A stretch of 64,000 bases of DNA, from positions 310,001 through 374,000 of the forward strand of contig JAPDRO010000009.1 in assembly GCA_030247885.1 (NCBI GenBank), given 5' to 3'. Source of the stretch: Taxawa tesnikishii (nom. ined.). Lineage: Eukaryota > Ascomycota > Dothideomycetes > Dothideales. Below the pieces are notes generated by a model. That model was not told the origin of the DNA. It saw only the letters and a list, made by a program, of their open reading frames with translations, and searched no databases. The translations under genes were made by a program, and so were the position numbers. Shown here one piece after another: positions 3,453 through 61,083 of this stretch (the stretch's first letter is position 1; each line of letters starts with the position of its first letter).

Positions 3453-6315
3453 ATGAGCGACTTCAAGCTCTCCGCCGAGCTCAAGGGCCACGAAGACGAT
3501 GTACGTGCTCCACAGACCTGCCGTGTGGCAGCGTGAGTATGTGGTTCTACTTGGTTCATGTGCTTGCGACCGTTTACGCTGTACGGGTTGCAACAGTTAT
3601 CGTTGCAGCTCTTACATGCATCATGGCTGCTCTCGCTTCATGTTTCCTAGCGCTGAACCACCAGTGCTAACAATGCTACAAGGTCCGCGCTGTCGTCTTT
3701 CCCTTGCCAGACACCATCTACTCTGCCTCGCGTGACGGCACCGTGCGGCATTGGCGGCTTGCCTCTTCCAAACCCCCACCTTCGATGACACGCTCGCTGT
3801 GCAGTCAGGTTCATTCATTAACTCCTTGGCCTACATTGCACCGTCTAAGGAGTACCCCGAAGGTCTCATTGTCTCCGCCGGAAAGGACACCATCATAGAC
3901 GTGCGCCGATCGGGAGGCACTCCAAACCAGAACGCTGAGAGGCTCTTGCTTGGCCACGCCCACAATGTCTGCGCCCTGGATGTTGGAATGGGAGGGAGGA
4001 TGATTGTTAGTGGCGGCTGGGACAAACAGGCGAGAGTCTGGGATGTCGAAAGAGGAGAATGCGTGACAGAACTTCAAGGGCACGAGGCTGCTGTGTGGGA
4101 TGTCCTGGTATTCGACCAGGACCACATCATTACTGGTAAGCAAACAGAAGAGCGATAGAAGAGACGGCGGTGGAGGAAGGTGGAAAAGACTGAAACGGTT
4201 GTTCGGAGACATTAGTTGTCTACCTGCTAATGCTGAACATTAGCATGTGCCGACAAACAGATCCGCATTTTCTCCCCTAATGGAAAACGCTTGCAGACTA
4301 TCTCTGGCCTACCGGATGTAGTCCGTGCCCTCTGCAAGCTTCCGCCCAACCATCCATCTGGAGCAGCATTCGCATCTGCAGGAAATGATCAGATTATCCG
4401 GCTGTGGACATTTGACGGCACCGAGGTTGCCCAACTGCACGGACACGAAGCATTCATCTACGCTCTTGCGACTTTGCCCAACGGGGACATTGTAAGCTCG
4501 TCGGAAGACAGAACCGTGAGAGTTTGGAGCAATGGGGAATGCGTCCAGACAATTACCCACCCCGCAATCTCTGTATGGACCGTGGCAGTTTGCCCCGAAA
4601 CGGGTGACATCGTGACCGGAGCTAGTGATCGGATTGTTAGGGTTTTCAGCAGAGACCCAGAGCGGAAGGCCAGTCCAGATGTGCGTGACTTTGTTGCGGC
4701 GATGCAATTTCGAGTGCAGCTTGCAAGGCTAATGCAAACGTGTAGGCAATTCGACACTTTGAAGAAAGCGTGAAGTCGTCTAGCATCCCGCAGCAGACAG
4801 CCGGGGATGGAGGGCAAGTCAACAAAGAGAAGTTGCCGGGACCTGGTAAGCCCAAAATCCGCACTAGCGATGCATGTAACATAGATTGATGCGATGCAGA
4901 ATTTCTGCAACAAAAATCAGGCACCAAGGAAGGTCAGGTGCAGATGATCAGAGAGGCTAACGGAAGCGTCACCGCTCATCAATGGTCGTCAGCCGCACAA
5001 CAATGGATCAATGTGAGTGCCTCTCCTGGTTATATGCAATTATGAAGCTGAAGACTGCCGCAGGTGGGCACGGTTGTTGATTCCGCTGCAAGTAGCGGCC
5101 GCAAAGTCACGCATCAGGGCCAGGATTACGATTATGTCTTTGATGTTGACATTGAAGACGGCAAGCCGCCACTTAAACTTCCCTTCAACTTGGGTCAGAA
5201 CCCGTACGAGGTGGCGCAAAAGTTCATTGCGAACAACGAGCTGCCCATTACCTATTTGGACCAAGTAGCGAACTTTATTCTTACAAACACGCAAGGCGCC
5301 ACGATTGGATCAAACTCGCACCACACCCAGACTCCTGGAGGTGATCCATGGGGCACCGAAAACCGTTACCGGCCTGGTGAAGCCGGTGCACCTGAACCAC
5401 ATGGTAAAGCCAAATTTGATACCAGTTTGCCAAGGCAACGACGAACACTGTGCTGACAATGGTCTAGGCGACTCTCGACCTCGCGCTCTTCCTCAGACTC
5501 AATACCTCTCCATCACTACTGTCAACCTCCCCGCCGTGCGGAAGAAGATCACGGAACTGAATGATTCCGCCTCAGCAGATGTTGCTCTGTCTTCGGACGA
5601 AGTGAAGCATCTCGAAAACCTGGTCAAGCAATTGCAGTCTTCCCCGACAGACCCCAAACCGCAACCAGATCAGCTTTCTGTGGTGATCAAGATCATATCG
5701 AAATGGTCTCCTGCGAATCGCTTGCCGGGTCTTGATCTTCTTCGTCTATGCGCCATGGCATCCTCGTTCGCTATGGATACCAGCGGTGGAGAGGGTACGG
5801 TTGTCGACACTCTAGAGGCAGCTGGCGTGTTTGCGGCCGACACGGACAAGCCAAACAACACCATGCTTGCTGTCCGTACCCTAGCCAACATGTTCAATAC
5901 AGAAGAGGGCAGGTTCATTGCGGACGGCTGCTACGAACAAATTGTAGGCCTCGTGAAGCCGTTCGCAAAGTCGTCGAACAAGAACCTTGCGACAGCGATA
6001 GCCACGCTGTACATCAACTTCGCCGTCCTGCTTACCGCTGGTGCGCCATCTGATGAGTCTGCCACTCGGGAGAAGCGTGCCGCTGCAGTGTACGACGACG
6101 CCATGTCATTGGTGGAGGTGTCCAGCGACAGTGAAGCAACGTACAGAGGCTTAGTCGCGTTAGGTACGTTCCAAGCACTCGGCGACGAGTTCAGAAAGAC
6201 TATCGCCTCTGAGAGAGGAGTTGGAAAGCTGCTCGACAAGGTCAGCAAAGGACCCCTTGGAAAGGAGAAGAGGATCCAGGCTGTGGTGCAGGAGATGCGG
6301 GATCAGTTCGAGTGA
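3453..6315 (+). CDS. DOA1: Doa1/Ufd3 (PLAA) homologue: WD40, PFU and PUL domains
   Basis: Ubiquitin-binding cofactor of the Cdc48/p97 ATPase, acting in ubiquitin homeostasis and mitochondria- and ER-associated degradation (family knowledge). Seven exons fit: 3453-3500, 3683-4135, 4244-4680, 4746-4845, 4900-5012, 5064-5403 and 5468-6315, with introns of 54-182 nt. Residues 1 to about 310 are WD40 repeats ('SASRDGTVRHW', 'GGWDKQARVWD', 'SSEDRTVRVWS'). About 384-497 is the PFU domain ('PFNLGQNPYEVAQKFI'), and about 520-779 is the helical PUL domain that binds Cdc48. The frame breaks once inside the first WD40 repeat at the C5 run 3773-3777. One more C there restores 'SSKPPTFDDTL' and makes the total 2340 nt, or 779 aa, the normal family length. 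I read this as a base-call error, not a dead gene. Confidence 0.9.
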
Positions 6316-7733: not shown

Positions 7734-9029
7734 GCGGCGGTCACGGGCACGGTTGTGTGTGGAGTATTTGTCATAGCTGTAGCCAACGAGTTAACGAAGT
7801 AATGCCAGTGATCGCCTCTCTTCTCTGTGTGGTCTGAGGTATGCATTGTAGGAACTGAAGTCGGCAGTCTTGTTTGTCCCGCCACTTTCCATTGAGGGTC
7901 TTGCGCAGACCAAAGACTTGCGCATTTCCGAGCGAGGTGACAGAATCATCCTGCCACGACCATAGCTGCATGTGTGGTGGACCTCTTAAAACAAGACTAA
8001 CTTGCGTTCTTAAAGGGTACTTCGCCGAATCGATAAGGTACTATTAGAAGGCAGGAACTTTACTATAATCTTTCTTAAGCTCAAAACGAACGTAAATATA
8101 GATCGTAATTAATTGCCCCTTATGCTAAAGAGGCCTATAAAAGGCGATAGCTATTAGCGTTCTCAAGGGACGGATTTTATGCCCGGATTTCTTATTATAG
8201 GATAAGCATGATGCTATAAGGCCTATATATATTATATACCTTTAAAACTACGCTTTAATTTATTACCTTTTTATATAAGGAGAACCTCTAAAGCCGCAAT
8301 ATATACGGCAAACTAGATTAACTATACTTTAAGTAGAAATAACTACGACTCATAATAGTAACTTATTAACTTTGGGAAGAAGGATGACGAAGACTGAAGC
8401 TCCTGCCTTCAGCTCGCCGTTAACGCCTCAAGGGAGTTTTACAAAGAGGATGGCGAGGTAGCGATAGAGCGTCAGAAAGATCACGCTCCATTGACTCATT
8501 TTTGACGAAGAGATCTGTCCCGTGGCTGAAGAAGCTCCGCGACAGCATGAGGGTCAGAGCGATCTGATCGCGGTGGTCATAGGGGAAGGGATCGAATTTG
8601 AAAGAGCAGATTGCAAGGGTGGTCGTGTTCCTGATATCCAAACTGAAAGTTGCTGCGAAGGATCCGGGTTGAGAGCGTCATCACGATGCTCGGGAAGTTC
8701 GTGAAACGAAGCGTAGACTGAAGTCCGATCAGAAGTACAACGAGGCTCTGCTCGTTCCCTTTGCCGACCCCACTTGCATACAAGCGGGAAGGGTTCCTCC
8801 GATTGGCTGCAGCATCCCAATCCCAACCTCTCGTTTCCTGTCTATCTTCTTGCACAGCCTGCTTCAACCGTAGAGTAACTCAGTACGGGTAGTTCAGGAA
8901 CACACTTTCCTTTTATGTGGGTGGCTTTAGAGGATTAATGCCTGTCTCTGAGTTGCTTGTAGAGGCTTCAACGCGAATGGACCAATTGCACCCTGGGTTC
9001 TCTGCATCTCCGGGTGTCATTGAAACAAT
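7734..9029. other. Intergenic stretch containing an AT-rich island
   Basis: Between the secreted protein and the Zn2Cys6 factor. The middle third (about 7985-8372) is AT- and TpA-rich and is listed separately. The flanks have normal base composition. Overlap-prone frames at 8420-8867 on both strands carry no family signature. Confidence 0.6.
7985..8372. repeat. AT-rich, TpA-rich island; likely RIP-affected repeat relic
   Basis: Composition changes abruptly from about 50% GC to strongly AT-rich. TpA steps are very frequent (TATATATTATATA, CTATTAG, TTATTA) while CpA and TpG are scarce. This is the signature expected when repeat-induced point mutation converts CpA to TpA in duplicated DNA of Pezizomycotina. 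No open frame survives, no terminal repeats are visible, and the parent element cannot be named. Its boundaries are judged by eye. Confidence 0.65.
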
Positions 9030-10730
9030 ATGGTCGGCGTTCCGGGAAGATCAAAAGCGTGCCACACGTGCAGGAGGAGGAAGAAAGGCGTATGTTCTAC
9101 CTGCCGTACCCGGAAACATCGTGCGACTATCCTCTGACAGTATCTGTAGTGCGGTCAGCAACGCCCCTTTGCCATCAGTGCGTGAGCAGTGGCTTAGTGT
9201 GCGAAGGGTACGAAAGACAGCGGATATTCGTCGCCCACGAACCATCGGCTTCAGTTACCAAGACCACCCGGCCCTTGGTAGTCGCGCCACAGGAAACGCC
9301 ATCGCTCAGGTTACTGCCAGATACGGTTAGCCACGCTGCATACGACGAGCAGACATTTGCCCTCTTCTGGGACATCTATCTACCCAAGTACCCGCTTGGG
9401 CCCACCGGATCTCTGGGAGTGCCAGTGTCGTTGTGGACAAAGATTGTCACGACACTCTACCCCAATGACATTGCGCTTCGAACAGCGCTTCTTGCCATTG
9501 CCGTGGATTGCATTGGAAGACAATTCGATGACAGGCTTTATACAGAGAAAGGTATTGGGCTGTATGGCAAAGCTCTGCGCGAAACAAACCGAGCCTTGCA
9601 GGACCCCAGGAGGGCTCATAGTGATGAGGTGCTCGCTGCTTGTAGGTTGCTAGGGAGTTACGAGGCAAGTCATCCCAACGAACCAGTTGTATCAGTGGCA
9701 GGGCGCTCTGAGAAGGGGATTTTGCTGTGGCTTAACTAGCTTGCTAGTGGCTCAAGTGCTTATTGCTGACAGAATCCCAGGTCTTGCACACGTCCGACCA
9801 CGAACAACGCACGGCTGGATACAACTGGCTGAACCATGCGCAAGGCATCTGCAGATTGATCCAGCACCGCGGGCCCCGGAGACATATCTCCGGCCATGGC
9901 CACCATATTTTTGCCGAAGTTCGTTTCTCAGGAGTTCGTTCATCGCCACCCCACCCTCACTATTCCTGCAGCTTACGTATCTCTAGATTATTGCAGCTAT
10001 CAGAACCCGAACAAAGACCTTTCTCAGCGATCCAATGTGGACGAGCGTGCCATGGGAAGACACACCCAGAGACATCAAAGATGAATTGATTGATATTTTG
10101 GCCGTTGTCCCTGAACTATTCTATCATCTCGACGCCTATGCATCTTGCCAAAATACCTCGCAGGCAGCACAGGGGCGCCAGTTCGTCCTGCAAAAGTGTT
10201 GGACTCTAGACAGCGCATTACAGAAATGGCACCTCAAGCTATTGACGATGCTTGATCAACCCAATCCGACCAGCAGCAGGATCTCCGAAGGACGGAACGA
10301 GTTGAACCCGCACGACTTCAAGACCTGTGGATTTGGTGCAGCATATCTCATCTTGCTGTACTGGGGCATATGCATCATGGTGTATAGCACACTTCGAACC
10401 GTGGTGCGCCAGATTGGAGAACCTTTGGGTGTTCCACTGCCAGCTCGAACCGATCCTGGGCTCTATGCAATCAAGATCACGCAGTCAGTGGACTATTTCT
10501 TCGCCCAAGATGCAGGTCTCGTAGGGATGCAGTATGTCATATTCCCGCTCGGTGTCGCGTTGCAGCATCTGATAGCGACGCGGGCTACGGACACCCAAGC
10601 ATGGCGCAAGGCCACTCGAGTCTTCGACCAAGAGGGCGTGGGATCTTCGCTTGGCAAGTTTTTGAAAAACCACCTGACCATAGTTTCGTTGATGTCTACG
10701 CTCAAACAAGACAGCAGTGACCACCCGTAA
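9030..10730 (+). CDS. Zn2Cys6 transcription factor with fungal-specific PF11951 domain
   Basis: Exon 1 (9030-9089) encodes 'SKACHTCRRRKKG'. After a 60-nt intron (9090-9149) the cluster continues 'CGQQRPLCHQC', placing cysteines at residues 11, 14, 21, 28, 31 and 38 (C-x2-C-x6-C-x6-C-x2-C-x6-C), a complete binuclear zinc cluster. The frame needs one more C in the run 9164-9167. The next intron appears to use a GC donor (GAG|GCAAGT, 9665-9780); a weaker GT donor at 9689 is possible. A third intron is 9934-9986. Total about 490 aa. The body matches the PF11951 domain ('AGYNWLNHAQGICRLIQ', 'GHGHHIFAE', 'RTRTKTFLSDPMW'). It is a nuclear DNA-binding regulator; the target is unknown. It ends 62 bp from the converging PF11951 gene. 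Confidence 0.8.
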
Positions 10731-10792
10731 TCCTTGCGCTCGACGTGGCTCCGACCTCTCCGCTCTAGTGACACACCGCTCTTCGATCGTAG

Positions 10793-12600
10793 TTACTGAA
10801 GCTCATCTACGTACCGCCCAGTCCGTTGCCGCCACACATCCTGGCAAAGGCCCTCACACACCTCATCTTCCAACAAAAACGACAACAGCGCGTCTCGAAC
10901 GGCTTTCCACGTCTCCCAAGTCAGCGTTACTGAAACGAACATGAGCTCCTTGATGCTCTCCTCCACCTCCGCCATGCGTTTCGTCTCATTGCCAAGCAGG
11001 ATCCACAACAACGATAGAATCGTGTGACACCAGTCCGTATACTGGGATAGCAGCGTTGCTTTTAACCTTTCCACCAGCCGCTGGCTTTTCCTGATCCATG
11101 GCACGTGCGGCGGAGACATTGAGACAAGATATATGAGCGCACCAAGCCGGACGGAATCCCGTATCAGCCGGCGGCGACCGAAATATGTCTTCTCCGGCGG
11201 CGAGTGCAGATTGCCAAAGATGCGCGTCGAGCTCGAGCATCGTTTCCGAGCCCATCGGGGACGCGGCGGCGACTTCGTGAGAAGGAGCTTTCAGCTGCAT
11301 GTTCTCTTGGAATATCTTTTGCACAATGCTGGTACAATCTTCGCAGAGGTCATAGCAGGCCGGAAGTTTCCAGTTCTGGAACAACGTTTGCGGATTTGAG
11401 GTCCTGAGAACCCCAGAGATAGTACCCGAGCGAGGGAGAGAAAAACGGCGATGGCTGATCAGGTGGCACGAGCCGGCGTAATCGAGCCTACGGTTCAACT
11501 CAGCACGGGCGGACGGAACGGCTTAGGGAACACATGTACCAGAGAACCAGAAGTGCTAATGAAGGATTGGAAGCCTCTAGACTGTCAATCCCACCTCTCA
11601 TATTGATGATGTGCTGTAGCCCATCCATGTGTCTGGTGTACGACTCATGGTTTCCAAATTGTAGCTTGCCATAAATTAGCTTTTGCCGTCAGCCACACTG
11701 GCCTTGGGATGCCTGCCGTGCTCATATGGGGAGAGGAGTCACCCGACATACCTCCAACCCTGCGTTGGCCGCAACGGCAATTATGGTCTGATCCCGGGTG
11801 GCGGTGTATGTGTTTGACAAGCGTTGGTTGATGGAGAGTATGGATGCGCACTTTTGCAAGGCAGCTTCTTCGGATTCCTTACGCCCGTGCCTGACCGCGA
11901 TGTCCATGGATGCAGCGGACAGCAGTGCTTGAATGGCGGCTAGATCTTGTCGTGCTAGGTCGTAGAAGAGCATCCTGATAGGCCGAAAGTCCGAACTCGA
12001 ATCGGTCGCAAACGGGCCGGGGTTACGGTGTAGACGACTGAGCTTGTATCAACGCCGCTGCAAACATGGTGAAAGGGGGACAGCATTAGTATCCTGAGCA
12101 GTCAGTCGAAACGACTGTTGAGAACACTGAGCAGCATGAGGGCTTGGACAGCATGGCCACAACCTACAATGACTAAGAAGTGCGTCCATCTGACGTGGGG
12201 TCCGATGGGATGTGTTCGGGCAGAACGGATCAACCTTTGTTGTACCCAGCGTACACAGTTGCATTGCTTCAGGCGCCTGTTGAGTGTCGCTGTAATGCCC
12301 GCTGTCACTCTCTGGATCATCACCATCGAAGACGTCCGGAACTTCTGTCAGTGCTGGCGTTGGTAGACTACCTTGACCTTTGGGAGTCGGTTCTGCTGTT
12401 AACTCCGCGATGAATGCTGATCTGCTCCACTGCCTGACGGTTCGCGTGAGGTTCCGTTCGACACGTCCGCTGCCGTCGTGGGCTTGACGGTAGTTTGACT
12501 CGAGAGACTCCCGGCTTGAGGATATCTCGTCACAATTCGACATCACAGAATCCTTGCGGCAATCCGTTCGTCTTGAGATTGGCGAGTCCTCGAGCGACAT
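10793..12600 (-). CDS. PF11951 fungal-specific regulator lacking a visible zinc cluster
   Basis: N-terminal exon from 12600: ~140 polar residues ending 'TKVDPFCPN...RQMDALLSH', the usual entry to PF11951 domains. The middle exon has 'YDLARQDLAAIQALLSAASMD', then a clear 87-nt intron (11665-11751, GTATGT...AAG), then 'LQFGNHESYTRHMDGLQHI'. The C-terminal part includes 'RDSVRLGALIYL' and 'LLSQYTDWCHTILSLLWIL', ending at 10793. The frame changes several times. Two changes at C3 11251-11253 and G4 11257-11260 each fit one missing base; those near 11500 and 12010-12110 are unresolved, so exact exon borders are not given. I considered a pseudogene, but the conserved motifs survive throughout and the breaks follow the window-wide missing-base pattern. 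No Zn2Cys6 motif was found upstream. Confidence 0.65.
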
Positions 12601-19107: not shown

Positions 19108-22100
19108 ATGGACCATCACCGCCAGAGATGGACGCAGGAAAGACGCCGCAAGCAACCGAGTCTCTACGACGAATACCTTAACGAGGAGAGGTCCGCCCAG
19201 CGAGAAGCGACACCGCAACGCAACCCCTCCGCCATGCGGAATGTCAACGCCAACAATGCCGGCACCATTCGCGCCGTAACCCCCGACAACCAGTCCATTG
19301 CAGAAGAGGCAGTCGTACAGCCGACGAGCACACATAGTTTCGAACGGCAGTACCTGTCTCACGTCACACCTTCTTCGTCTCCTCGCACCCTGAAAAGAGA
19401 AAGAACCAGCCCAAGGAGCATACCGCCGGAAATCTTGACAAGGTCGGATTCGACAGATGGAAGCAAGCGGGATTTCAATAGCAGCGTCAGTGGAGGTATA
19501 TACGGGCACGTCAGGCCCCGAACGAGGACACTTGAGGAGGCTAGGACAAGGGAAAGATCTCCGTCTTCAGTGATTGGAAAGAGCAGGGCCAGGATAGGTT
19601 CTGTCCATACCGCAACATCCCCTTACACTGGCAGTGATGGCATGTCCTCCGTCGGCCATCCTTCGCTTGTTTCGCCACTCTCACAAGCGTCTTTCGGCAG
19701 CTCGTCAGTCGGAGATCATCCGCAACGTCCCGTTTCACCGGAGTCTTCCACTGCGCCCTTGGTAGCCGAGAGCAACACGAGCAAGCGCAGAACCGTGCAT
19801 CTGATGAGGACGCTCTGTGGTCGCATGTCGGGAAACTTGTACTTTCGACGTGGTGCCAACAACCCGTGGTCCTCATCGTACTGTTACATTCATGAGGATA
19901 CTGGAAGTTTGATGTACGAGCCGGGCGTTGATACCGGATTCCACAAGACGCTCATTCCTGACCTTCGCGGTTGTCGCATCAACGCGCTGATTGACGAATC
20001 GTTGGAAATGCCTTACCTGGAAATTGTCGTGCCCAACTCCACATTATCAGTTCACATCCGGGCAAATGCCCAAACCGATTTCGATTCTTGGTATGCGGCG
20101 TTAATGTGCTGGAAGCCGCTGAAACCGAAAGGTATTCACAATAGGATGGCAAAATCACAAACAGGGGTTTTCTCAGGAGGCCACTCACCGCTGAAAGCCG
20201 GAGGAATTCTGAAATGTCCATGTTGAAAGAAGCACCCATCATCAAAGTTGGCAAAATGATCTACTGGGATACTAATGTCTCCTACAGTAATGTCGGCGCC
20301 TCAAAGTCGGTCAGACCGCAGGTGCACAGGATGCAAAGCTACGGCTCCCGATGGTGGCGAAGAGTTTCGTGCACGCTAAGAGAGAACGGAGAGCTCAAGC
20401 TGTACACTGAGACCGAGAACTCCCTAGTGACGGTTGTACAACTCTCGCATCTCTCGAGGTGTGCTATACAGCGTTTGGATCCATCCGTCTTGGACAATGA
20501 ATTTTGCATCGCCATACACCCCCAATACACCTCGACCTCAAGCACAACGCCTTCACGACCAGTATACCTTTCCTTGGAATCACGCATACTTTACGAAGTT
20601 TGGTTTCTACTCTTACGAGCGTTCACGATACCCCAACTCTACGGCCCAAGGCCTCCGACGCCGGATGGCCACGACGACATGAGCACACCGTCTGATTTCA
20701 ATGCTCTTCTCGAAAACTCTGCAATAGACATGTTCCGCATGGAACGCGCTCTTTCCATTCGGATTGTAGAGGCTAAGCTACCGCCTAGCGCTGTCGTTCC
20801 ACCTTCCGATTCAACCCATCATTCTTCCAGGTCTAACCATTCGTCATATAAAGTCGATCATGCGAACGGATATTATGTCGAGATCCATCTCGATGCAGAG
20901 ACGCGTGCCAAGACGATGGTGAAGTATGAAGGGCTGTACCCGTTCTGGCGAGAGGAGTTCGACTTCCTGGATTTGCCCGCTGTTCTGAGCTCCGCTTCTG
21001 TGGTTCTGAAGCACCGCCCTCCCGATACAACAACCATGGCCGAACGGCAGCAGGCGCGCCTCATCCACGAGGCTTATGGGCTCATTGACAATGGGCAGGC
21101 CGGTGGAGCAGCATCGGGGTACACGGGCGTCTCGCACGATCAGACACTGGGCAAGGTGGAGATATATCTAGAAGAACTGGAAGCATGCAAGGAGATTGAG
21201 AAGTGGTGGCCTGTGGTCAATGTGTACGGCCAGAACGTCGGAGAGATTCTGATTAAGGCTCGAGCAGAGGAGAACGTCATCCTAATGACCCGCGACTATG
21301 AGCCGCTTAACCAGCTGCTGCACCGGTTCGGCAACGGACTGACTCTGCAGATCGCACAAATGATCCCAGGAGAATTGCGACGGTTGTCTGACACGCTACT
21401 CAATATATTCCAGGTCTCTGGCCAGGTCACGGAGTGGCTCATGGCGCTTGTCGAAGAGGAGATAGACGGCATTCACAAGGAAACGCCCATCTCCCGATTG
21501 CGGTATAGCCGGCGTATGGGGAGCAACGAGTCCGAAGCCTTGGGGTCCTCCGGTGTGCAAAGTGACCGAGAGATGATTGTTCGTGACATGAACAAGAATG
21601 CTACGCTGGAAGCGAACCTTCTATTCCGTGGAAATACCCTCCTCACCAAGTCTTTGGATTCTCATATGCGTCGCGTTGGCAAAGAATACCTTATCACTGC
21701 TCTCGGCTCAGTGATCAAGGAGATTAACGACAAGGATCCTGATTGCGAAGTCGACCCGAACAAAGTTTCGGACAACCACGTCATGCAGAGGAATTGGCAC
21801 AGGCTTCTAAACTGCACTCAGGACGTCTGGGCCGCCATCAAAGGTAGTGCAAAGAAGTGTCCCTTGGAGCTGAGAGTCATTTTCCGGCACATTCGAGCTT
21901 GCGCGGAGGACAGATATGGTGACTTCCTGAGAACCGTCATGTACAGCAGTGTTTCGGGTTTCCTTTTCTTACGGTTCTTTTGTCCTGCAGTTCTTAACCC
22001 AAAGCTCTTTGGATTGCTCAAAGGTATGCACACGTGTTTCTAGTTGCTGCTAAAAGATGCTGACCACACATAGATGATCCCAAGCCTCGAGCTCGCCGAA

Positions 22101-27800: not shown

Positions 27801-27839
27801 AAGAGAGAGGAAAAGAGAGAGAGAGAGAGGGGGGGGGGA
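27801..27839. repeat. (AG)n followed by a G run
   Basis: AGAGAGAGG, AAAAGAGAGAGAGAGAG and then a run of about nine to ten G bases are visible. Given the missing-base problem in this assembly, the true length of the G run is uncertain. Confidence 0.9.
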
Positions 27840-28560: not shown

Positions 28561-33091
<4,531 letters not shown>

Positions 33092-33490
33092 TGGCTGATG
33101 GGGATGCGGGAACGAAAAGATGACGGGTGCATCGTGATGGCGTTTTGAGAAATTTGCGAAACACTTGTGCATAGCGGTCGGCGCTGTGGGTTGGTTTTGC
33201 ATGTAGATACTGGCTGGGGAAGCGTTTAGGTTCCGCAGCGTGTATACCCAAATCCATGTGGCATCTTTTGTTGTCGGAGTTTTACACATAGTTTCTGGAT
33301 GCTTCATGATACTGTCATTAGAGCCATGATGTATTGGTATCTACGCATATGCACAACGCCACCCCTCCCAACATGCGTGTTTCTCGCGGCTTCCTTTTCC
33401 CTTATATCTACTGAGGCGGGTCGAATGGATGCACCAGCATATCACTGAATCTGTCATGACCCGTTAACACACACACACTCTCTCTCTCTT
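33092..33490. other. Convergent 3' region with (AC)n/(TC)n
   Basis: About 400 bases between the converging RPC1 and GET3 genes. It should contain both 3' UTRs and terminators. A short ACACAC then TCTCTC run lies at about 33466-33490, right after the GET3 stop codon. Nothing else seen. Confidence 0.6.
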
Positions 33491-34561
33491 TCACTGCGTC
33501 AAAGAAGAGGGGTTCACATACTTCTCAAGCTTCTCCTTCCCCGCACCTCCTCGACGAGTAAGGGCATCTTGACGACATTGAAATCCTCATATAGCTCCTC
33601 GATTTGCTCAAGGTACTTCTTCTGCATCTTCCTCCTGGCGCCGCACTGCTCGCAGGGATTGTTCTTTTGGGGAAGAGCAGCTGATTGACGACAATCGAGT
33701 GGGTATCAATGTGGTAACTGTTCAGTTCTTGGATCATGCGCTCCGTCTCATACAGCGACAAGAACTCGGGGATGCACACGCAGACAAAAGTCGTCAGATC
33801 TGCGTCCTTGAATTGCGTGTTGACCTCTCCGATGGTGGCCCGCAAATCCTCCATCTTGCGCAACATGTCGTCGAGGTTCTGGCCGTTGGGCAGCCCGCCC
33901 CGCGCCCCCAGGACCGAGTTCAACATGGGTCCGAACTGGCTGGAGAGCTGGGAGATCTTTGCCAAAGCTTTCTCCATGACAGTGGGGAATTGGAGGAAGC
34001 GGAGGGTGTGGCCTGTCGGGGCGGTGTCGAAGATGATGACTTCGTAAGAGAGCGACTTGACTTGCTTCAAGACTTCGGCGAAGGACATGGCCTCGTCCAC
34101 GCCAGGAATCTGTGGCGATCTGTCAGCATGCGTTTGTCACCGTACGTATACAGGACTTGAGAGTGCCGTACGCTGAAGGCAAGGTCCTGCATCATGTTCC
34201 CCATTCCGCCCAGTGCTTGCATGCCCTCTTGTGCCTCGTCTCCTCCCGCTGCCAGCAGGTCCTGGATGCTGCCGTTCGGATCAATTTCCATAGCGCTAAG
34301 GTTGTCGAACCCGTTCACGAGTCTCGCATCCTTGCCGAACTTCTGGTTGAAGGCGTCGGACAGGTTGTGCGCCGGATCCGTTGATATCAGAAGGACGGAC
34401 TTTCTGTGCTTGGCCATCTGGATTGCGAGCGAGCATGATGTCGTTGTCTTTCCGACACCTCCTTTGCCGCCGACGAAGATCCAGCGCAGCGACTTCTGGT
34501 CGAGGAGCGACTGGAGGCTGGGCTCCATAACGTCGTCGGCGTCGACAAGGGCGCTACTCAT
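33491..34561 (-). CDS. GET3: GET3 ATPase (ArsA-family, tail-anchored protein targeting)
   Basis: Cytosolic homodimeric ATPase that carries tail-anchored membrane proteins to the ER receptor Get1/Get2 (family knowledge). Exon 1 is 34561-34172 (130 codons) and exon 2 is 34109-33491; the 62-nt intron begins GTACGG. The deviant P-loop '[13 protein letters not shown]' is at residues 31-43, then '[12 protein letters not shown]', '[10 protein letters not shown]' and 'VVNQLLFP'. The zinc-binding C-x-x-C of the dimer follows ('[10 protein letters not shown]') after one missing base in the T4/G4 run 33665-33672. A second is missing at C4 33539-33542, giving the usual end '[11 protein letters not shown]'. 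With both, the protein is 336 aa, the normal size. Convergent with RPC1. Confidence 0.92.
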
Positions 34562-35192: not shown

Positions 35193-37612
35193 TCAGGTCA
35201 AGACGTCACGCTCCGCGTTCTTTGCAAAGATGTCCCAGGGTGTCACGGCTCCAAGGGCGCGCTTCATGTGGGCATTGACGATCTGCAAGCCGTAAACGTA
35301 GGATGCGTTGACCCAACCAAATCTGTTCATATGTTAGCAAACCTGTCAAGTAGTTGGCATCCTTCGTAGTAGAGATTTACCCTTCCTTGGCCACACCCTT
35401 GAAGTCGGATCCCTGGTTACCGTACTCCGCCTCGACCTTGTGTGGGTGAATGGGCTGCGTGACATCGTACTTTTCGACCACAACGCCGTTGAAGTCGACG
35501 AAAGCTTTGGTAACCATATAGAGCCATCTGTAAGCTAGACGCTGAGCCTCGGCCTCGTAGCCGAAACGCAGCAGCCCAGTCCACGCCAGGATTTGCTGAG
35601 GGGCCCAACCAAAGGGATAGTCCCATTGACGGTTAGGTCTCTCAAGTCCGACAGGGCCACGCGACTCCTCAGTACCGGAAACAAGGCCACCGAAAACCTC
35701 AAACTTTGAAGTGCCATCTCGACCATAGTCGATGCTTGACGAGGAGTACAGGCACCAGCCCACATAGCCCAGAAAGTCGTTGCCGATTCGTAGCCCGTGT
35801 GGTGCTTCTTCTTTGTGTCGTAGTCGAAGAACATGCCCTTCTCCTCATCCCAGAGAAGCTTCTCCATGGTCTGACGCCTACGCTTGGCACGGCGGTCCCA
35901 GATAGCCGAAGTCTCGATATGGCCTGGCTTTTGATCCCTTGTGCAGAATTCTGCCGGGATGGTAAGACGATCTCCGAAGAAAGCACGGATGCAGCGCGCG
36001 ATATCCACCTCGTACTTGTATAGCAGGGAGTTGAGATCAATAGTCGCAAGGTCAGCAGCTACACGTTCTAGACGATAAGAGGTATCGTGGCCGGTCTCGC
36101 GCACAGCACGGTCGTGGCGGAAGTACTCATCCAGCTCTGGTTCGTAGACATGTCCATAGTTGTAAGCCTGAACGAAGTCCTCAAAGGTCATGTTGTGCTT
36201 CTCGGCGTATGGTTCCAGGATGTGCACGAAGTGAGTAGCCTCTGTCTCCGGGGGTACACCAAGACCACCCGGCGCATACTTTGACAGGCCGGACTCTGGA
36301 TCGTAACGTGGCTCCGACATCCAGACGCTGTAGTACTCCTTGATGGCTGCCAGGATGGCATCCTTTAAGAAGTCCTTGGCATCTTCTTCGTGCTTGATCC
36401 TGTCGTAAACTCGCAATGCCATGTCTGTGAGAAAAGGTGGCTGTGACCGGCAGAGGTAGTACGAGCGGTTGGCGTTAAGGATCTTGTTGTAGTGCTTGAT
36501 GCAGAAACAGAAGTGCTTGACCATGGACTTTGCAAGATCGACGCGGTCGTTGACCAACAAGCCAAGGGTCTCCATGTAGCTGTCCCATCCATACAGTTCA
36601 TTGAAGCGACCTCCTGGTACGACAAACGGCAATCCCTGGTAATCTGGCGCACCGTCGGGAGTATCCGCGACCCTCTCCATGGCGATAGCCAGCAGCCCAG
36701 GTGCGGAGTTCAGGTCCCGCACGTATTCTTCGTTGTCTGGGTCTTCTGACAGCCATTGCACATCGAGACGCATATCTGGGTGCTCTCTTGCAATCCTGCT
36801 GTAGTACTCGTGCTGCTCTGGAGCACCAACGGGGATGTAGATACGGGGCCTGGGATCTGGAGTCCAGTCCTTAGGATCCCTGGCGACTTGCGCAATGTTC
36901 GAACCATCGATCCGCCTCGTTAAACCTGGCCAGAAGGAGTCTTTGATCAAACGTGAGAGACGGCTGACCGGATTTTCGCTCAGGCGTGCCTCGTCGAGCA
37001 CAATGTGCTTACGACCGTACTCTTTGGCGAGCGTGAGCTCCTGAAGGAGGTTTGAGAGCATGTACGTTCCACGAACATCGAAGGTTTTGATGCCACCAGA
37101 GGCAAGCGTGCCCAGCTGTAGTGTCTGATTCCCTCGTAAGCTCTTGCAATCGCCGTCCAAACAGACACTCCACCCACCTTGGGACCCGAATCCTCGATTG
37201 TGATCTGCACATTGTTGTCCGTATCCTCGCGGGAAAGCAAGGTGTTGAGTGTGTCTTGGACGTTAATCAAGTACTTCCGTGGCTGGTGTCCTTCCACATC
37301 TGGGCAACGTCAGAACTGGGGGTATCGTAGGAAGAAGGGAGGTCGGGCTCACCGTGACTGAGACGACGATTGGGGAGGGCCAGGCCAGGAGCAGACTGCT
37401 GGATTCTGCTGCGGGCATTTGGGTCGATCTGTGGGTTGGTGGTCAGCGCGGGGAAACAGATTGTCTTCAGACTCTTAGCTTACCGCCGAGTATGTCCTGG
37501 CCTTGGTGTGGTTCCTCTTCCCATGGGACTCGCCGTAGTAGATGTGGGCAGCCGAGTAGGGGTCGAGATCCCCGGAGATCTTCCTTTCGTGGGCGGATTT
37601 CTGCGCGCTCAT
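35193..37612 (-). CDS. NTH1: Neutral (cytosolic, cAMP-regulated) trehalase
   Basis: Hydrolyses trehalose to two glucose (GH37). Exons 37612-37484, 37428-37178, 37115-35381 and 35322-35193; introns 55, 62 and 58 nt. The N terminus carries 'NRRLSHG', the PKA site that activates neutral trehalases, and the calcium-binding loop '[12 protein letters not shown]'. Both trehalase signatures are present: '[14 protein letters not shown]' near residue 294 and '[10 protein letters not shown]' near the C terminus. Two frame breaks, at about 37285-37292 and 35709-35715, each fit one missing base; the total then is 748 aa, the standard length. There is no signal peptide, which separates it from acid trehalase. 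It ends with 'NAERDVLT'. The upstream region contains two simple-sequence arrays. Confidence 0.93.
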
Positions 37613-37671
37613 GCTCTGGTTGAGGGAATGTGACTGTGTGCTGAAGGAATTGATAACTCCTGAAGCGGGTA

Positions 37672-46037: not shown

Positions 46038-47150
46038 ATGACGACTACTCAAGCAGTAGCGCAGTCTGAGCAGGGTCAGATTGTCTGCTGGCTTCTGGAT
46101 ACCCGTGCTCTCTGGCCTGGGGAGAAGATTGAGAATGCCGTTCGTCGACAACCCGGATTCTGAAATCCCGAGTGCTGATGGAGGAACAGGCCGCAGAGGA
46201 ACTCAAGCTTCTTTCACTTGAAGAGCGGAAAACATGCATCCGCAAAATGTTTGTTGCTGATGCGAAAATGTCGTTGGGGTCAGCACTTCTAAAGCGTCTT
46301 TTCGTATCGAGAACTTGTGGTTTGGCGTGGCACGATATCCAGTTTGCCAGAATAGGGGACCCGAAGCATGGGAAGCCATGTGCTGTCCTTCCAACCGGCG
46401 GGTTTGCGCCCATTGACTTCAACGTGTCCCACCAGGCTGGGTTAGTTGCTCTGGTGGGCTGGACCGGAGTTCAAGGAGACAGAGCGCTGTCGGACTCAAA
46501 AGCCGGAGGCAACGTCCAAGTCGGAATAGACATCGTTTGCGTTAATGAACGAGATGATTATCGCACGATCGACCAAGAAGGCTTCAACGGCTGGGTTGAT
46601 ATTTACGAAGAAGTCTTTTCCGAGGAGGAGCGCTGGGACATGAAGTACAACGTGGACGAGGTCACACTTCTGGACGGCCGAACGCTCACAGCAGAACAGC
46701 TAGGTCGGCATGATCGATGCGTACGACGAGACATTGAGCTGAGCTTGACTCTACCGTCGGGACAGCAGCAAACCTTCAACAGCGACATCTTGATCGATGC
46801 GAAATTACGGCGGTTCTACACCTTCTTTTGTTACAAGGAAGCCTACATCAAGCTGGCAGGCGAAGCGTTACTTGCCCCTGGCTCAAAAACTAGAATTTCA
46901 AAACGTCCGCAGTCCTAAGGCGGGAACAGTAGCCAGATGCTCGACACATGGCACCTGGAGCGAGAAAGTCGAGGACGTCGAGGTCTTGTTGCACGGGAAA
47001 AGGGTCGAAGATGTCAAAATGGCAATCCAAGCGTTCGAGGAGAACTTCATGATTGCCACTGCCATTCAAGGGAATGTTGAGCTTGAAGTGCCAGCTTTCA
47101 CCAAGCTCAACCTCGAGCACGACATCTTGGCCTCAGCAAGAACTCGATGA
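46038..47150 (+). CDS. 4'-phosphopantetheinyl transferase (NpgA/Lys5 type)
   Basis: Transfers 4'-phosphopantetheine from CoA to a Ser on carrier proteins of fatty-acid, polyketide, NRPS and lysine-pathway (Lys2) enzymes. Starts 'MTTTQAVAQSEQG', then 'CWLLDTRALWPGE', 'RKMFVADAKMSLGSALLKR', 'DFNVSHQAGLVALV', the metal-binding 'VGIDIVCVNE' and the P3 motif 'FFCYKEAYIKLAGE', where the Lys-Glu pair is catalytic. Three single missing bases restore one frame: C3 46152-46154, C4 46875-46878 and A5 46885-46889. The sum is then 371 aa with no intron, similar to Aspergillus NpgA in layout. Only 279 bp separates its start from that of PDX2, which is divergent. Confidence 0.88.
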
Positions 47151-49179: not shown

Positions 49180-49572
49180 TTATAACTCCTCATCAGGCGC
49201 ATCGTTCCCACTCGTGGCTTTGATGTCCTCAAAGGCGCTCTTGCCAGCATAAAGCTGCCTGCTGGGTTCGCTCGCCCCGGCTTCGAGCTCTACGCTTGAT
49301 GCGACGGGCTTGTTTCCTCTGAATCGTTTGCGCATGTCGATCATGCCGCGCTTGCATTCGCCGTAGCCTTTTTAAGCTGTTGACATCGTGTGGGAAGGGT
49401 GTCGACGAGGGGTGGTCGCAGGCAGTCGGAGGGCTTGTTACGCTCGATGAGGATGCAATCGGAGTTTTGAAGACATTCGGCGAGCGCGGCTCCTGGTATG
49501 GCGGATTAGATTGAGGTTGTGTTAAAGGATCAGAGGATATAGCATACGGATGTCCTTGCAGGAGGACGGCAT
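49180..49572 (-). CDS. PET191: Cytochrome c oxidase assembly factor PET191 (COA5)
   Basis: Small mitochondrial intermembrane-space protein needed to build complex IV. Exon 1 (49572-49548) encodes 'MPSSCKDI'; after a 55-nt intron (49493-49547, GTATGC...CCAG) exon 2 continues 'RAALAECLQNSDCILIERNK' and 'DCLRPPLVDTLPTRCQQLKK'. The C-x9-C spacing of the first Cys pair and the later Cys pairs fit the twin CX9C family imported by Mia40. One missing base at CC 49367-49368 links to 'GYGECKRGMIDMRKRFRGNK'. Final length 112 aa, as in other filamentous fungi. The gene is easy to miss because of its tiny first exon and frame break. Confidence 0.9.
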
Positions 49573-50103: not shown

Positions 50104-52122
50104 ATGCCAAGGATACCCTTTATTGGGCGACTGGCCTTTGCAGAATACCTAGCACTGATAGGGTCTTTCATACTCATCGGTTTGGAGATATTCGTCCGCG
50201 GCGTTACTCTCGCTCTACCTGCGCCGCTGTTTCGGTTTCTGTATCAATCTTCGAGACGGGCATTCAATTGGTTGTCCTCCCCACAAGGCAGGAGGTCCAG
50301 AAACAGGAAGAAGTCCATTTCTTCCCCAATCGCGCAGGCCTCCGACTTCGTGGAGCTGTGCGAAATCTTTGGCTATTACGCTGAAGAGCACATCGTGCAG
50401 ACCGGCGATGGCTACCTCCTTGGCCTCCATCGCTTGGGTTGGCGTAAAGGCGAAGAAGACCAACGGGTGAATGCCGGGGAAGGAAGCATTCAGAAGAAGG
50501 TTGTGTATCTACACCACGGTCTCATGATGAACAGTGAAGTCTGGGTGTGCTTAACCGAGAAGGAGCGCTGCCTTCCTTTTGTTCTCGTTGAGAAAGGTTA
50601 CGATGTTTGGGTAAGTTAAGTGCCTGATGTCGTTCCATCTTTACTAAACACGGAATGCATAGCTTGGCAACAACCGCGGAAATAAATACTCGAAGAAGTC
50701 GGTGCATCATTCACCAACGAACACCCACTTTTGGAATTTCTCTATCGATCAGTTCGCCTTTCATGACATCCCAGACAGCATCTCGTACATCTTGGAAACC
50801 ACACACCAGCCTTCCCTGTCTTACATAGGCTTTTCTCAAGGAACAGCGCAAGCATTCGCTACGCTGTCCATACACCCAACACTAAATGAGAAGGTTGACG
50901 TGTTCATCGCTTTGGCGCCTGCAATGTCGCCACCTGGCTTGGCCTCAGGCATCGTCAGTTCGTTTGTCAAGGCATCCCCAGATTTACTCTTCCTTGCCTT
51001 TGGCCGGAAGGCCATTTTGAGCAGCGCGACCATGTGGCAGGCATTACTCTACCCAGCCATATTCACCTGGTTCATTGACGTGAGCTTACGCTTTTTGTTT
51101 GGTTGGCAAGCGAAGAACATTACGGCGTATCAGAAGCTGGCAGCTTACCCACATCTCTACTCCTTCACAAGCACCAAGAGTGTCGTACACTGGTTCCAAA
51201 TCATCCGCACTGGGACATTCCAAATGTTCGATGATGAAGTCCAGGCCCCACTAAGCCTCACCAACGGGTCCAAATACTATAAGGTGGCCAAATTCCCAAC
51301 GCGAAACATCAAGACACCCATTGTTCTGGTTTACGGTGGGAGTGATAGCTTGGTGGACATCAAGATCATGCTGAAAGAGCTGCCACAACATACCCAGGCC
51401 AAGGAAGTCCCCCACTATGAACACCTGGACTTCTTGTGGGCTTCCGATGTTGACAAGCTCGTCTTTCCGCACGTGCTGGACGCACTCGACTTTCATGCGG
51501 GAGGCAGAAGCCGCAAAGGGCGTAGGTCGCCGTTCAAAACTGTAAGAAACGAACATTCGACAACGCCCCAGCCGCCAAGCTACTCCGAGGATGAGCGAAT
51601 ACCTACGATGCCACAGAAGGTTCAGGACACAGGCACTGGCAGGGTAGAAGAAATGGGGACGGCTATAAGGAGAGGACCATTCCGTGCGGGTACACCAGAG
51701 CGACCGACATCGTCCCAAAGCCGTGTCGCAGCTGTAACCTCCCTGTACAGGTCCCCAGCTCGCCTATCAACTCGCAATTCACGGACCGATCGACCAAGTC
51801 GAGACCAGAGGGATGGTGGTCGTCTGATGAGGTGGCCGGCACTTCTGATTCGCCATCGCCTATCCAGGAGCGCCCGTCTAGTTCCGTCTACCGGACCATA
51901 ACAAGGTCTGATGCAGCCCCGACGGCGAAGCACAAGACTCGGCTCAGTACAGACAGTGCACGCTCGAGCGACGCAAGCGTAAACCGGCGGGGGATAGGTC
52001 TGGGAGCGGCAAAATCGCCTGTCGTGGAGGGCCTCGAGAACCGGGAAATAACTACACCGGGTAGTGCTGCGGATGAGGATATGGCAGACACGAAGGAGAA
52101 GAGGAAGGGAAGGAGAAAGTGA
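50104..52122 (+). CDS. AB-hydrolase lipase, probable steryl ester or acid lipase
   Basis: Exons 50104-50610 and 50663-52122 (52-nt intron). Residues 10-33 are a hydrophobic N-terminal anchor. 'ELCEIFGYYAEEHIVQTGDGYLLGLHR' (spanning about residues 95-121) is the PF04083 lipase lid region. 'VYLHHGLMMNSEVW' is the oxyanion loop, 'GFSQG' holds the nucleophile Ser near residue 227, 'LVYGGSDSLVD' the Asp and 'HYEHLDFLWA' the His. The C-terminal ~130 residues are Ser/Pro/Arg-rich and disordered; the frame shifts once between about 51700 and 51830 (exact base not placed), giving 655 aa. The layout matches fungal TGL1/YEH-type membrane-anchored steryl ester hydrolases, which act on lipid droplets or ER. 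Substrate is inferred, not shown. Confidence 0.85.
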
Positions 52123-54052: not shown

Positions 54053-54126
54053 ATACTACAGATGGAAAGTTGAATGGTGTTCCTGGCTTCAATCGAAAAG
54101 ACGTTTTCGCATATGGCCATGTTCCG

Positions 54127-56805: not shown

Positions 56806-57112
56806 CGACCGTTCTGTATCAAGCGAGCCCCTCGATCAGGAGACATTGCATCGAGCCAGCATGCGAGCTGAATGGCCGTGTCGCGTCAGTCGCAAATCGT
56901 CCAACAGCGTAGTTCCTGGTCGACCTGTTCTCCAGAAACGGAAGGAACACGAGATATTCGGAAGGCACGGGCCACGATCGCTCGGCTGCTTCCGAACCTG
57001 CGTTTCGACGACATCTCCTGCGATTGCAGACAGCTCCGCGAGCACTCGCACCAAGGTACTCTCTCCACTCAACTCTCCAATTAAGCTCGTACAGACACCA
57101 ACCACCTTCGCA
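56806..57112. promoter_or_regulatory. Divergent promoter shared by the PPR gene and COX7
   Basis: About 307 bases separate the two start codons, both for proteins predicted to be mitochondrial. No TATA box was recognised. Shared regulation is inferred only from spacing. Confidence 0.45.
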
Positions 57113-57662: not shown

Positions 57663-58286
57663 AGGTTCGGCACCAGATGGGTTTGATGTTGAAATGGTAA
57701 AGACTCGAGTGGAGATTGCATGCTGTATACTAGAGCGCACGAGAAGGCAATCCCGGCCTGGGATACCACGTTTGTACATAAGCTCCGGCCACAGAACGTC
57801 GTCTGCAATCCAGCATTCATTTATGTGCAACTTCGACCTTGCGGCTGCGTATAACAATTTAATAGTCGTTGCTACGCCCGCACACTCCCCGAGGTTTTTT
57901 GAAACGTGCTACTGACATCAACACGCGGTCTCCAACGAAGAGAATGTCAGTGCGACAATGGTCTTTGGCGTGCTCGACACAAGGCGTCACATACCTCGGC
58001 AGGTTTGGGATTTCACTTGCTCCAACACAGGCGCAGCTCAATCTGGGTGCTTGAGCCAGCAAATCTGGCAGAATCCCTATCCACAAGTAGCATCGCATCC
58101 AATACCGGTTTTGGATAGATTTGCGAAACACGCCTGAGATTCCGTTAACATTCTAACCCCTATCCCGTAGCATCACTTACAGAAATTGCGGTCGTTGATA
58201 AGAGAGTAACCCCAAGCTGAATTCGTTACTCGTTGCTCCCTGCTTAACAAAACCCATGCTTCTTACTGTCTCCCCTAGCCAGTCCA
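57663..58286. other. Intergenic, 0.62 kb
   Basis: Lies between converging genes. Frames of 60-90 codons on both strands have no family signature. Nothing else recognised. Confidence 0.5.
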
Positions 58287-58903
58287 TCAGCTCAGAAATG
58301 ACCCGCTTACTTCCACGAGGCCCTCCAGCGACCTATAAACCTCACACTGTCCCACGTAGTCTCTTACATACGTAAGCTCCTCCTGCGTGCTGCAACCATA
58401 CCGCACTACGCAACCCTTCGGCACCCTCTCCCTAAGCCCCTGCCAGATCCTCCTGCACAGCTCTGCCACTGCCTCAGCATCGTCATCCTTGTCATCTACC
58501 ATCAAGACCCGCAAACTCTTCAACGCCACCATTGCATCCAAAGGCTCAAGATACTCTCCAGGATCAAAATCGGGGTGCGTCGACTGTTCAACTCGAGCAC
58601 TATGAACAAACTCCGGAGTTTCGGCAACGCTTCCTCGCGCATCTGAAGATCGATGATGGGCCAGCTTTTCTCAAAGACCTCGCTGGGTAGGAAGAATGTG
58701 TTGGCTTCATAGTAAATACGTTTTGCTTCGGCATGGACCTTCTTGTTCACTTGTAAGAGTTCAGGAGAGATAGTGGGGTTCTTCTTGTATGACGCGGTGC
58801 TGTAGTCGTAGTTGATTTGGATGCTGTGCGTGGGCGCGAGAATGTAAGTATAGATGCGGAGACGGAGCTCGGCGGGGAGGTCGAGGAGGCGGAATGGTGA
58901 CAT
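58287..58903 (-). CDS. Small F-box-like / 2EXR-like fungal protein
   Basis: Starts at 58903 with 'MSPFRLLDLPAELRLRIYTYIL', the opening helix typical of a large fungal family of F-box-like proteins. It continues 'SPELLQVNKKVHAEAKRIYY' and 'EANTFFLPSEVFEK', also hallmarks of that family. The frame breaks once at about 58584-58590; one missing base joins 'STHPDFDPGEYLEPLDAMVA' and leads to the stop at 58287, for about 205 aa. Function is unknown; family members are numerous and fast evolving. No intron is needed. Confidence 0.7.
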
Positions 58904-59166
58904 GATGAGTTGAACTGCCACTCCAGTTCTTATTGGCAATGTGCCATTGGGGTACGGTTCAGTTGGTATAGTAGGCGGGAGATGGAAATCGCCACCGTAA
59001 TGATGACGAGGCGGGATTGGCTTTACCGGTCAGCTCATTGTTCAACGCATGGCGTTCTCGACTACAATGTCACTTCTTCAACTACACTGCTCATTCAGGT
59101 CTTGTCCCGTGGGTTGAGTGCTATACGACACAAATGCTGAACTCTCAACAGTGTACAATTGTCCAA

Positions 59167-61083
59167 CTACGGAACTTCCCCATCCTCATCGTCACCACCA
59201 AATCCAAAGCTAAACCCGCCAGCGCTCTCGCCGTCTTCCTCCTTTCCCTTGCCTGTCAGCTCCTCCCACCGCCCCCTCTTCCCCTTACCGTCCCTCTCCA
59301 ACTTCTCCAACGCCTCGGTCAAAGCCTCCGGCTCCTTTCTCCTCAACTCCTCTACGAACAAACCATACGGATCCTCAACGCTATCCGCAAACCCACTAAT
59401 GCTGTCCTTTTGATCCCGTAAGAATGCAAGTACGTCCTTAAGATTCCGTCTTGGGACGAAGTTCTGCGTCAGAGCAATGCTCTCCTCGAGGTTAACGACC
59501 AGGTGATACCATCCCGCCGGCACGTACAGCATCTCGCCCTCCTCACAGATAGCCTCGATACAGCCTGGTGTGTGTCGGGCTTCTGCGTGAAAGCCCAGAA
59601 GCCACTCAGCGATGCTCAGAGGGCTGGTGACTTCGCTCTGATCCTCGGAGACGAAGACGCCTGGCGGCGGTGGAAAATTCGAGGAGGATGGAAACATAAT
59701 CCAGTACTTACGCCCACGAAGGACTGCGTTCCAGGCGCACGTTCCGTTCGGGTCTTTGTGGAAGGTCGATCCAGAACGTGCGGGCCCAATGATAAGCCAG
59801 CGGTGGTGGGGACGCTGATCGCCCAGGACGGAGAAGAGGTCCTGCTTTGGGCCAAAGCAGGTCGGTGGCCAGTATGCGACCGTACGTGCATCGTGATCCG
59901 AGCGATAGCCTGGCTTGACGGTTTTCTCAGAGTTTGGATAGTAAAAAGGAACGCTAGTGCAGTGTGTACCAACGATGCGATCCTTCAGTTCGGAAAAGGA
60001 ACGCTCGTAAAGTCGCGCCTTGGTCGGTTCAGGTACCTTGACTTGCATCTTCTCGGCAAAGGAGTGGTCAAACAGGTACAAGGGTGACTCATCGCTGCTG
60101 CTGCGCATGTACTCAACGTAGCTCCGGAAAGGCCAGTCTACGGATTCGGCACGGAAGGGCACATCGGCGTATTTTGAAAGCAAGTAGTCGACAGACCAGT
60201 GTTCGTACGCAGCCCAGCGGTGTGGAGGGCTTGTGACAATGAAGGGGTATTGCCAACAAGCTCCTCAGTAAGATCTTCGTACCGCATGATCTGGTTGCGC
60301 TCGGGAATGTTGGTCACAAATGGCTCAAGCGAAACATGGGCGCAGAAAAAGGGTCGGTGAAGTGCGTCGGAGAAAAGGTTGCTGCAGTCAACTCTCGGTT
60401 CTTGTGATTGAGGCTGGGAGAGATAGGTAGAGCGCCATGTGCCATGCCATGAGAAAGAAGAGGGGGCAGACCTACGAATCTCTCAGCCTACTGTTTTTGC
60501 ATATTCTATTGTGCTCGACAGACAGGGCACATAGGAAGTGTCTTCAGATCTGGTGGTATCTGAGCATGCAACGTTCCATAACAGCACCTCTGGAGGTGCT
60601 TGTATGCACCGCAACGGGCGAACTGATAATCTCGGAAGCCTCGTGCCACCCGAGCCCTCCATCTTGAACAACAGCTGTTTCCTATGTGCACGCTCCCGAA
60701 CACACATATGATGGGCACATGGCTAAATGCTGTACTTACTCGAGAAATAAGGTCTTCCATAGTTCCTCGGCTCTCGAGAAGGCGAAAAGTGCTCTGCATG
60801 TGCCACCGAGCTTCAGCAAAGAAGGCGCGTCGAGGTACTCGAGAAGCTGTATCAGAAGCTCGTCCGGAAGCACGGAAAAACTGCCACATGCTGCTTTCAG
60901 ATTGACATTGGAAGTAAATGCGTTACCAGACGGTCGGATGCCCAAAGGATGGCGCCGCACAGCTGTGGATTGCTCTGATTCAGTCGTCGAGTCATCCACC
61001 GATGACTGCAACTTGACTCTCTTGACCGGCCTGGAATGTTCGCTCTGTCTGTACTCGTCAAGGAGGGCGGCTGGTGGAGACAT
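59167..61083 (-). CDS. F-box plus JmjC-domain protein (JMJD6-like cupin)
   Basis: Exon 1 (61083-60740) carries a polar leader and an F-box at about residues 66-114 ('FSVLPDELLIQLLEYLDAPS', 'LGGTCRALFAFSRAEELWKT'). A 268-nt intron (60472-60739, GTAAGT...GTAG) is long for this window. Exon 2 (60471-59167) continues 'SWHGTWRSTYLSQ' and 'PFFCAHVSLEPFVTNIPERN', then the JmjC cupin: 'GSTFHKDPNGTCAWNAVL' with His353 and Asp355, and 'YVPAGWYHLVVNLEESIALT' with His437, the Fe(II) triad. The tail is Glu/Gly-rich. One missing base at 60244-60247 gives 549 aa. This is a predicted Fe(II)/2-oxoglutarate hydroxylase or demethylase tethered to SCF; the substrate is unknown. Confidence 0.85.

What the first reader, a model, noticed from the sequence alone, without database searches (positions are those of the whole stretch)
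3773..60247. Window-wide pattern: conserved genes broken by single missing bases in mononucleotide runs
More than 20 frame breaks in otherwise conserved genes can each be explained by one base missing from a short run: 3773-3777, 9164-9167, 11251-11253, 11257-11260, 20164-20171, 26384-26387, 29714-29716, 30561-30564, 31028-31030, 32437-32440, 33539-33542, 33665-33672, about 35709-35715, about 37285-37292, 41814-41818, 46152-46154, 46875-46878, 46885-46889, 49367-49368, about 51700-51830, about 58584-58590 and 60244-60247. None needs a base removed. Counting the missing bases makes total coding length divisible by three in every gene with resolved exons and returns normal family lengths (GET3 336, NTH1 748, RPC1 1477). 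Most runs are G or C. The simplest reading is homopolymer under-calling; if confirmed real it would be an extraordinary case of recoding.
Basis: partly seen in the sequence, partly recalled or inferred. Interest (0 to 1): 0.7.

Follow-up and report, generated by a model that had tools for sequence, protein, structure and literature searches.

The report
Missing-base sequencing errors in fungal assembly
Several essential fungal genes look broken here, almost certainly because the assembled sequence dropped single letters from short repeats, not because the fungus reads its genes in a new way.

Summary
Seven of 22 listed sites are firm: RPC1 (4), GET3 (2, one partly by eye), NTH1 (1). There, alignment to solved homologues runs on across the break in another frame, with no room for an intron. 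All seven steps look one base short. Five more sites lie in recognisable domains. Ten are not confirmed here, and one pair of them (11251-11260) has a net step that a single extra base would also explain.

The window holds 2 mononucleotide runs of 6 or more where about 37 are expected. Firm breaks are denser (7 in 7.2 kb) than in seven gene families elsewhere in the genome (2 clear in 75 kb, a lower bound). RPB1 is unbroken over 1406 residues. RPC1 has no second copy. Outside the window, 8 of 9 run contexts are also read straight through in the same phase.

This fits under-calling of short runs in a poorly polished stretch of a long-read assembly, not recoding or gene decay. No raw reads were available.

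The parts
28693..33070 (+). RPC1 (RNA polymerase III largest subunit) in six frame pieces: f1, f3, f2, f1, 53-base intron (31790-31842), f3, f2
   Evidence: Pfam Rpb1 domains 1-5 spread over three frames; pieces match yeast Rpc1 5fj8_A 21-366, 358-639, 632-792, 791-1045, 1059-1254, 1249-1454; intron length 53
29714..29716 (+). RPC1 frame step -1, at a short G run in a stretch almost identical to yeast on both sides
   Evidence: chain residues 366/358 meet across frames f1 to f3
30561..30564 (+). RPC1 frame step -1, at a short C run
   Evidence: chain residues 639/632 meet, f3 to f2
31028..31030 (+). RPC1 frame step -1, at a short C run
   Evidence: chain residues 792/791 meet, f2 to f1
32437..32440 (+). 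RPC1 frame step -1, at a short G run
   Evidence: chain residues 1254/1249 meet, f3 to f2
33478..34560 (-). GET3, one intron and two frame steps -1 (33665-33672 and 33539-33542); gene limits approximate
   Evidence: 3ibg_A residues 3-131, 131-280, 275-330 in successive pieces; Pfam ArsA pieces overlap at profile 246-249; last residues in the third frame, by eye
35290..37262 (-). NTH1 (neutral trehalase), firm frame step -1 at about 35709-35718; intron between 35380 and 35324; outer limits approximate
   Evidence: 5nis_A 32-510 then 500-622 in adjacent frames, then 610-641 after an intron-sized gap; calcium-binding piece in the third frame
3683..6312 (+). PLAA/Doa1-like gene; first WD40 blade one frame away from the next blades, step near 3773-3777
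   Evidence: WD40, PFU, PUL domains; first blade in frame 3422
9164..9167 (+). frame step inside a Zn2Cys6 motif of a fungal transcription factor
   Evidence: three-frame translation; Fungal_trans_2 at its cut-off; motif spacing recalled
46152..46889 (+). Sfp-type phosphopantetheinyl transferase with three listed frame steps (46152, 46875, 46885)
   Evidence: AASDHPPT_N and ACPS in one frame; flanking frames by eye
11251..11260 (-). two listed sites whose net step is +1; direction not resolved
   Evidence: three-frame translation

Best explanation
The firm breaks are errors of the assembled sequence. In this stretch of contig C34 the consensus dropped single bases from short mononucleotide runs, as happens in long-read (nanopore-type) assemblies with too little polishing or depth. 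The genes themselves are most likely intact in the organism. Shown: the frame steps, their common direction at the firm sites, the scarcity of long runs, the excess over other gene families of the same genome, the single copy of RPC1. Inferred: the platform, low depth or missing polish in this stretch, and the intactness of the true genes.
For: Seven firm steps, all -1, with homology unbroken across each. The two clear breaks found elsewhere are also -1 (rows). Runs of 6 or more: 2 in the window against about 37 expected from a first-order Markov model; 35 against 105 in 18 sampled 10-kb loci. The window is poorer than those loci (P 0.0004 Poisson, 0.01 allowing for their scatter), and runs per 10 kb are over-dispersed between loci (P 0.0005), as for uneven polishing. 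Break density 7 in 7.2 kb here against 2 in 44 kb (four families) or 2 in 75 kb (seven families): P 3e-5 and 1e-6. The sister gene RPB1 on C1 matches known RPB1 in one frame over 1406 residues with no break. RPC1 pieces are open up to each break. RPC1 has one copy. Published parallels, passages read: nanopore-only fungal assemblies broke frames at homopolymers (PMC7500977); in a long-read bacterial draft most indel errors were false deletions, most often after 4-5 equal bases (PMC12007338).
Against: No reads, depth or second assembly could be examined. No genome of known quality was available as a control for run counts, so part of the genome-wide shortage of long runs could be natural. PMC7500977 reports over-long runs more often than over-short ones after polishing, the opposite sign. 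The genome does hold long G runs elsewhere (up to 22 bases). Firm steps occur at runs of only 3-4 observed bases. The frame-scoring script without homology was weak: it called 1 of 15 window pairs a clear frameshift, only one of the four RPC1 breaks, and elsewhere 6 clear pairs of the one-short sign and 3 of the other.
Confidence: 0.94

Rival explanations
1. Recoding: the cell makes up for the missing base by ribosomal slippage or RNA insertion at these sites, so the genes work as they stand.
For: All seven firm steps go one way and each interval holds a run of 3 or more.
Against: Sites share no motif. In 44 long open frames outside the window, 8 of 9 run contexts with one flanking base occur in the same phase, and 4 of 9 with two (an earlier count, included window frames that hold two of the sites themselves). 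RPB1 is unbroken. Only 2 clear breaks in 75 kb of other families. The density is regional.
Confidence: 0.01
2. Real mutations: the region is decaying, or the strain has a repair defect that shortens runs.
For: One-base-short steps at runs and scarcity of long runs genome-wide could come from a mutator.
Against: RPC1 is essential in yeast (recalled) and is single copy here. Its four frame steps in 4.3 kb come with no nonsense substitution and strong similarity to yeast, whereas decay brings mostly substitutions (recalled).
Confidence: 0.03
3. Part of the list is ordinary introns misread as breaks.
For: Introns here are short (53 bases in RPC1; 19 of 35 family junctions elsewhere were intron-sized). 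Ten listed sites are unconfirmed. The script preferred or allowed introns for 14 of 15 window pairs.
Against: Cannot explain the seven firm sites, where homology leaves no room for an intron.
Confidence: 0.02

Closest known systems
Homopolymer-length errors in nanopore-only fungal assemblies (Drechmeria coniospora, PMC7500977; 11 passages read)
   Same: Conserved fungal genes broken by errors in mononucleotide runs; in its example the broken pieces together rebuild the protein; error rates uneven between genes.
   Different: There, polishing gave more over-long than over-short runs; here all seven firm steps are short by one.
Gene-fragmenting false deletions in long-read drafts (Kastor paper, PMC12007338; 12 of 45 passages read)
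   Same: Most indel errors are false deletions next to runs of 2-8, most often 4-5.
   Different: Bacterial genome; A/T runs dominated there, G/C runs are 14 of the 18 named here.
Frequent programmed frameshifting (Euplotes-type; recalled)
   Same: Many genes with frame steps in one direction.
   Different: No shared slippery site, not genome-wide, same contexts read normally.

Membership tests
Homopolymer under-calling in an assembly | Steps in one direction, one base short | tested here: met
   7 of 7 firm sites in the window and 2 of 2 clear sites elsewhere; unresolved at 11251-11260
Homopolymer under-calling in an assembly | Breaks lie at mononucleotide runs | tested here: met
   run of 4 or more in 4 of 7 break intervals against 14% expected, P 0.009; 3 or more in 7 of 7 against 60%, P 0.03
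Homopolymer under-calling in an assembly | Long runs depleted | tested here: met
   2 seen, about 37 expected by a Markov model; 35 against 105 in 18 other loci; no outside control genome
Homopolymer under-calling in an assembly | Raw reads carry the longer run | not testable with these tools
   no reads available
Programmed frameshifting or recoding | Common slippery signal that is not read normally elsewhere | tested here: not met
   diverse runs; 8 of 9 contexts read through in the same phase with one flanking base, 4 of 9 with two
Programmed frameshifting or recoding | Used across the genome | tested here: not met
   2 clear breaks in 75 kb of seven families; RPB1 unbroken over 1406 residues
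Pseudogene | An intact functional copy elsewhere | tested here: not met
   RPC1 only: one DNA copy, and three Rpb1-family loci (RPB1 on C1, RPC1, and one on C9 taken as RPA190 by elimination); the search covering GET3 and NTH1 was not scored
Pseudogene | Nonsense substitutions and relaxed conservation | tested here: not met
   RPC1 pieces open and similar to yeast

The most novel reading that the evidence does not exclude
The short runs are real and the cell restores the frame, by slippage or RNA insertion, in one chromosomal district holding essential genes.
Probability: 0.01. Interest if true: 0.95.

Novelty: not a real feature. Interest (0 to 1): 0.07.

Why it matters
It matters mainly as a warning. 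Genes in this stretch, RNA polymerase III included, would be annotated as lost, split or intron-rich. Frame breaks in conserved single-copy genes, together with counts of long runs, can point to poorly polished parts of an assembly without any reads.

Tried and rejected
Codon-usage and Markov frame scoring: too weak to tell breaks from introns. One search gave 8 one-base-short and 0 one-base-extra pairs in the window (one of the 8, at 61.9 kb, looks like an intron), 8 and 6 elsewhere. One search, looser, gave 14 and 1 in the window, 24 and 15 elsewhere; of the four RPC1 breaks only 32437 was called clear.

Flank loci on C34: an SDR gene near 300 kb and PCNA near 200 kb show gaps that are intron-sized by hand arithmetic; the 380-kb locus gave one partial domain and is uninformative. 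Too little to map the edge of the poor stretch.

C9 locus taken as RPA190: a probable extra -1 step in an unconserved part; not counted, and the junction script could not see it, so the count elsewhere is a lower bound. With 4 breaks elsewhere instead of 2, P is still 2e-4 (44 kb) or 9e-6 (75 kb). Large-family searches scored only the best candidates (11 of 48, 9 of 323) and so lean towards intact genes.

Naming the organism: rRNA searches failed; paper searches by assembly size listed nothing fitting (2 of 2 listed, 10 of 54; listings only). tRNA and Rfam scans of the window were empty. A search on Euplotes-type frameshifting listed one ciliate review (listing only). Two other literature searches supplied the two papers used.

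I also added (RPB1). The odds did not need changing.

Full report
The window is C34:310001-374000 of a 29.4-Mb genome in 34 contigs. Its genes are fungal by content: a PLAA/Doa1-like protein, RasGAP, RNA polymerase III subunit RPC1, GET3, neutral trehalase, an Sfp-type transferase, a JmjC protein, a lipase and a DEAD-box helicase. The organism was not identified.

Observation. I tested frame steps by reading genes in three frames with X at stops. RPC1 is the clearest: against yeast Rpc1 (5fj8_A, 1460 residues) the pieces match 21-366, 358-639, 632-792, 791-1045, 1059-1254 and 1249-1454 in frames f1, f3, f2, f1, f3, f2. One of the five changes is a 53-base intron (31790-31842). At the other four the chain residues meet, there is no room for an intron, and each step is -1. 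GET3 gives two such steps (the second, 33539, by a seven-residue match seen by eye) and NTH1 one. So 7 of 22 listed sites are firm, 5 more lie in recognisable domains or motifs, and 10 were not confirmed here. At 11251-11260 the net step is +1, which two missing bases or one extra base explain alike.

Not chance. 7 of 7 firm steps have one direction (two-sided P 0.016; 6 of 6 without 33539, P 0.03). Four of seven break intervals hold a run of at least 4, against 14% of 24-base stretches (P 0.009; interval limits set by hand). Runs of at least 6 number 2 in 64 kb against about 37 expected from a Markov model fitted to the same sequence.

Region and genome. In 18 loci of 10 kb sampled across contigs, runs of at least 6 are also short of expectation (35 against 105), unevenly: 0 to 8 per locus, over-dispersed (P 0.0005). 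I had no fungal genome of known quality as a control, so some of this shortage may be natural. Across seven families elsewhere, 98 matched rows (75.3 kb) gave 35 junctions: 19 intron-sized, 13 in frame, 3 short. Of the 3 short ones 2 are clear one-base-short breaks (a TCP-1 gene on C1 near 528262, an HSP70-like gene on C3 near 494622) and 1 has 38 extra bases and is unclear (three window rows left out). Breaks with a weak side would be missed, so 2 is a lower bound; a probable third lies in the C9 polymerase gene. The firm density here, 7 in 7.2 kb, exceeds 2 in 75 kb (P 1e-6), or 2 in 44 kb if the two families scored only in part and the polymerase family are dropped (P 3e-5); with 4 breaks elsewhere P is 9e-6 and 2e-4. 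An earlier tally that counted the PLAA-like step gave 8 in 9.4 kb against 2 in 44 kb. The plainest contrast is within one gene family: RPB1 on C1 matches known RPB1 in a single frame over 1406 residues, RPC1 is cut four times in about the same length. The window was noticed because of its breaks, so these P values flatter the contrast.

Mechanism. Consensus under-calling explains the sign, the runs, the lack of long runs and the uneven density. Published long-read drafts show similar errors: passages of PMC7500977 describe homopolymer frame breaks in nanopore-only fungal assemblies, though with over-long runs more often after polishing, and say PacBio assemblies are spared; passages of PMC12007338 describe mostly false deletions, most often after 4-5 equal bases. 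I infer, but could not show, that this stretch had low depth or escaped polishing.

Recoding is disfavoured. In 44 long open frames outside the window (68 kb), 8 of 9 run contexts (8 sites, one tested two ways) occur in the same codon phase with one flanking base, and 4 of 9 with two. Some of these frames may not be genes. Decay is disfavoured: RPC1 has one copy and its pieces are open and similar to yeast. The matching copy search for GET3 and NTH1 was not scored.

Against my reading: no reads were seen; long G runs survive elsewhere; firm steps lie at runs as short as 3 observed bases; frame scoring without homology was inconclusive and found some steps of the other sign elsewhere.

Noticed in passing
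window 8020-8360: AT-rich islet (33% GC in a 53% GC window) with TA/AT 1.39 and (CA+TG)/(AC+GT) 0.50, the usual marks of repeat-induced point mutation (meaning of the indices recalled).
   Followed up: partly
G000:C1:2192281-2192302 and other places: Uninterrupted G runs of up to 22 bases (longest among the places listed) in a genome otherwise poor in runs of 6 or more.
   Followed up: no
L030 about 1446-1474 (C9, taken as RPA190): A probable further one-base-short step in a third Rpb1-family gene, in an unconserved part.
   Followed up: partly
window 27829-27838: The only run longer than 6 in the window, ten G at the end of an AG repeat.
   Followed up: no
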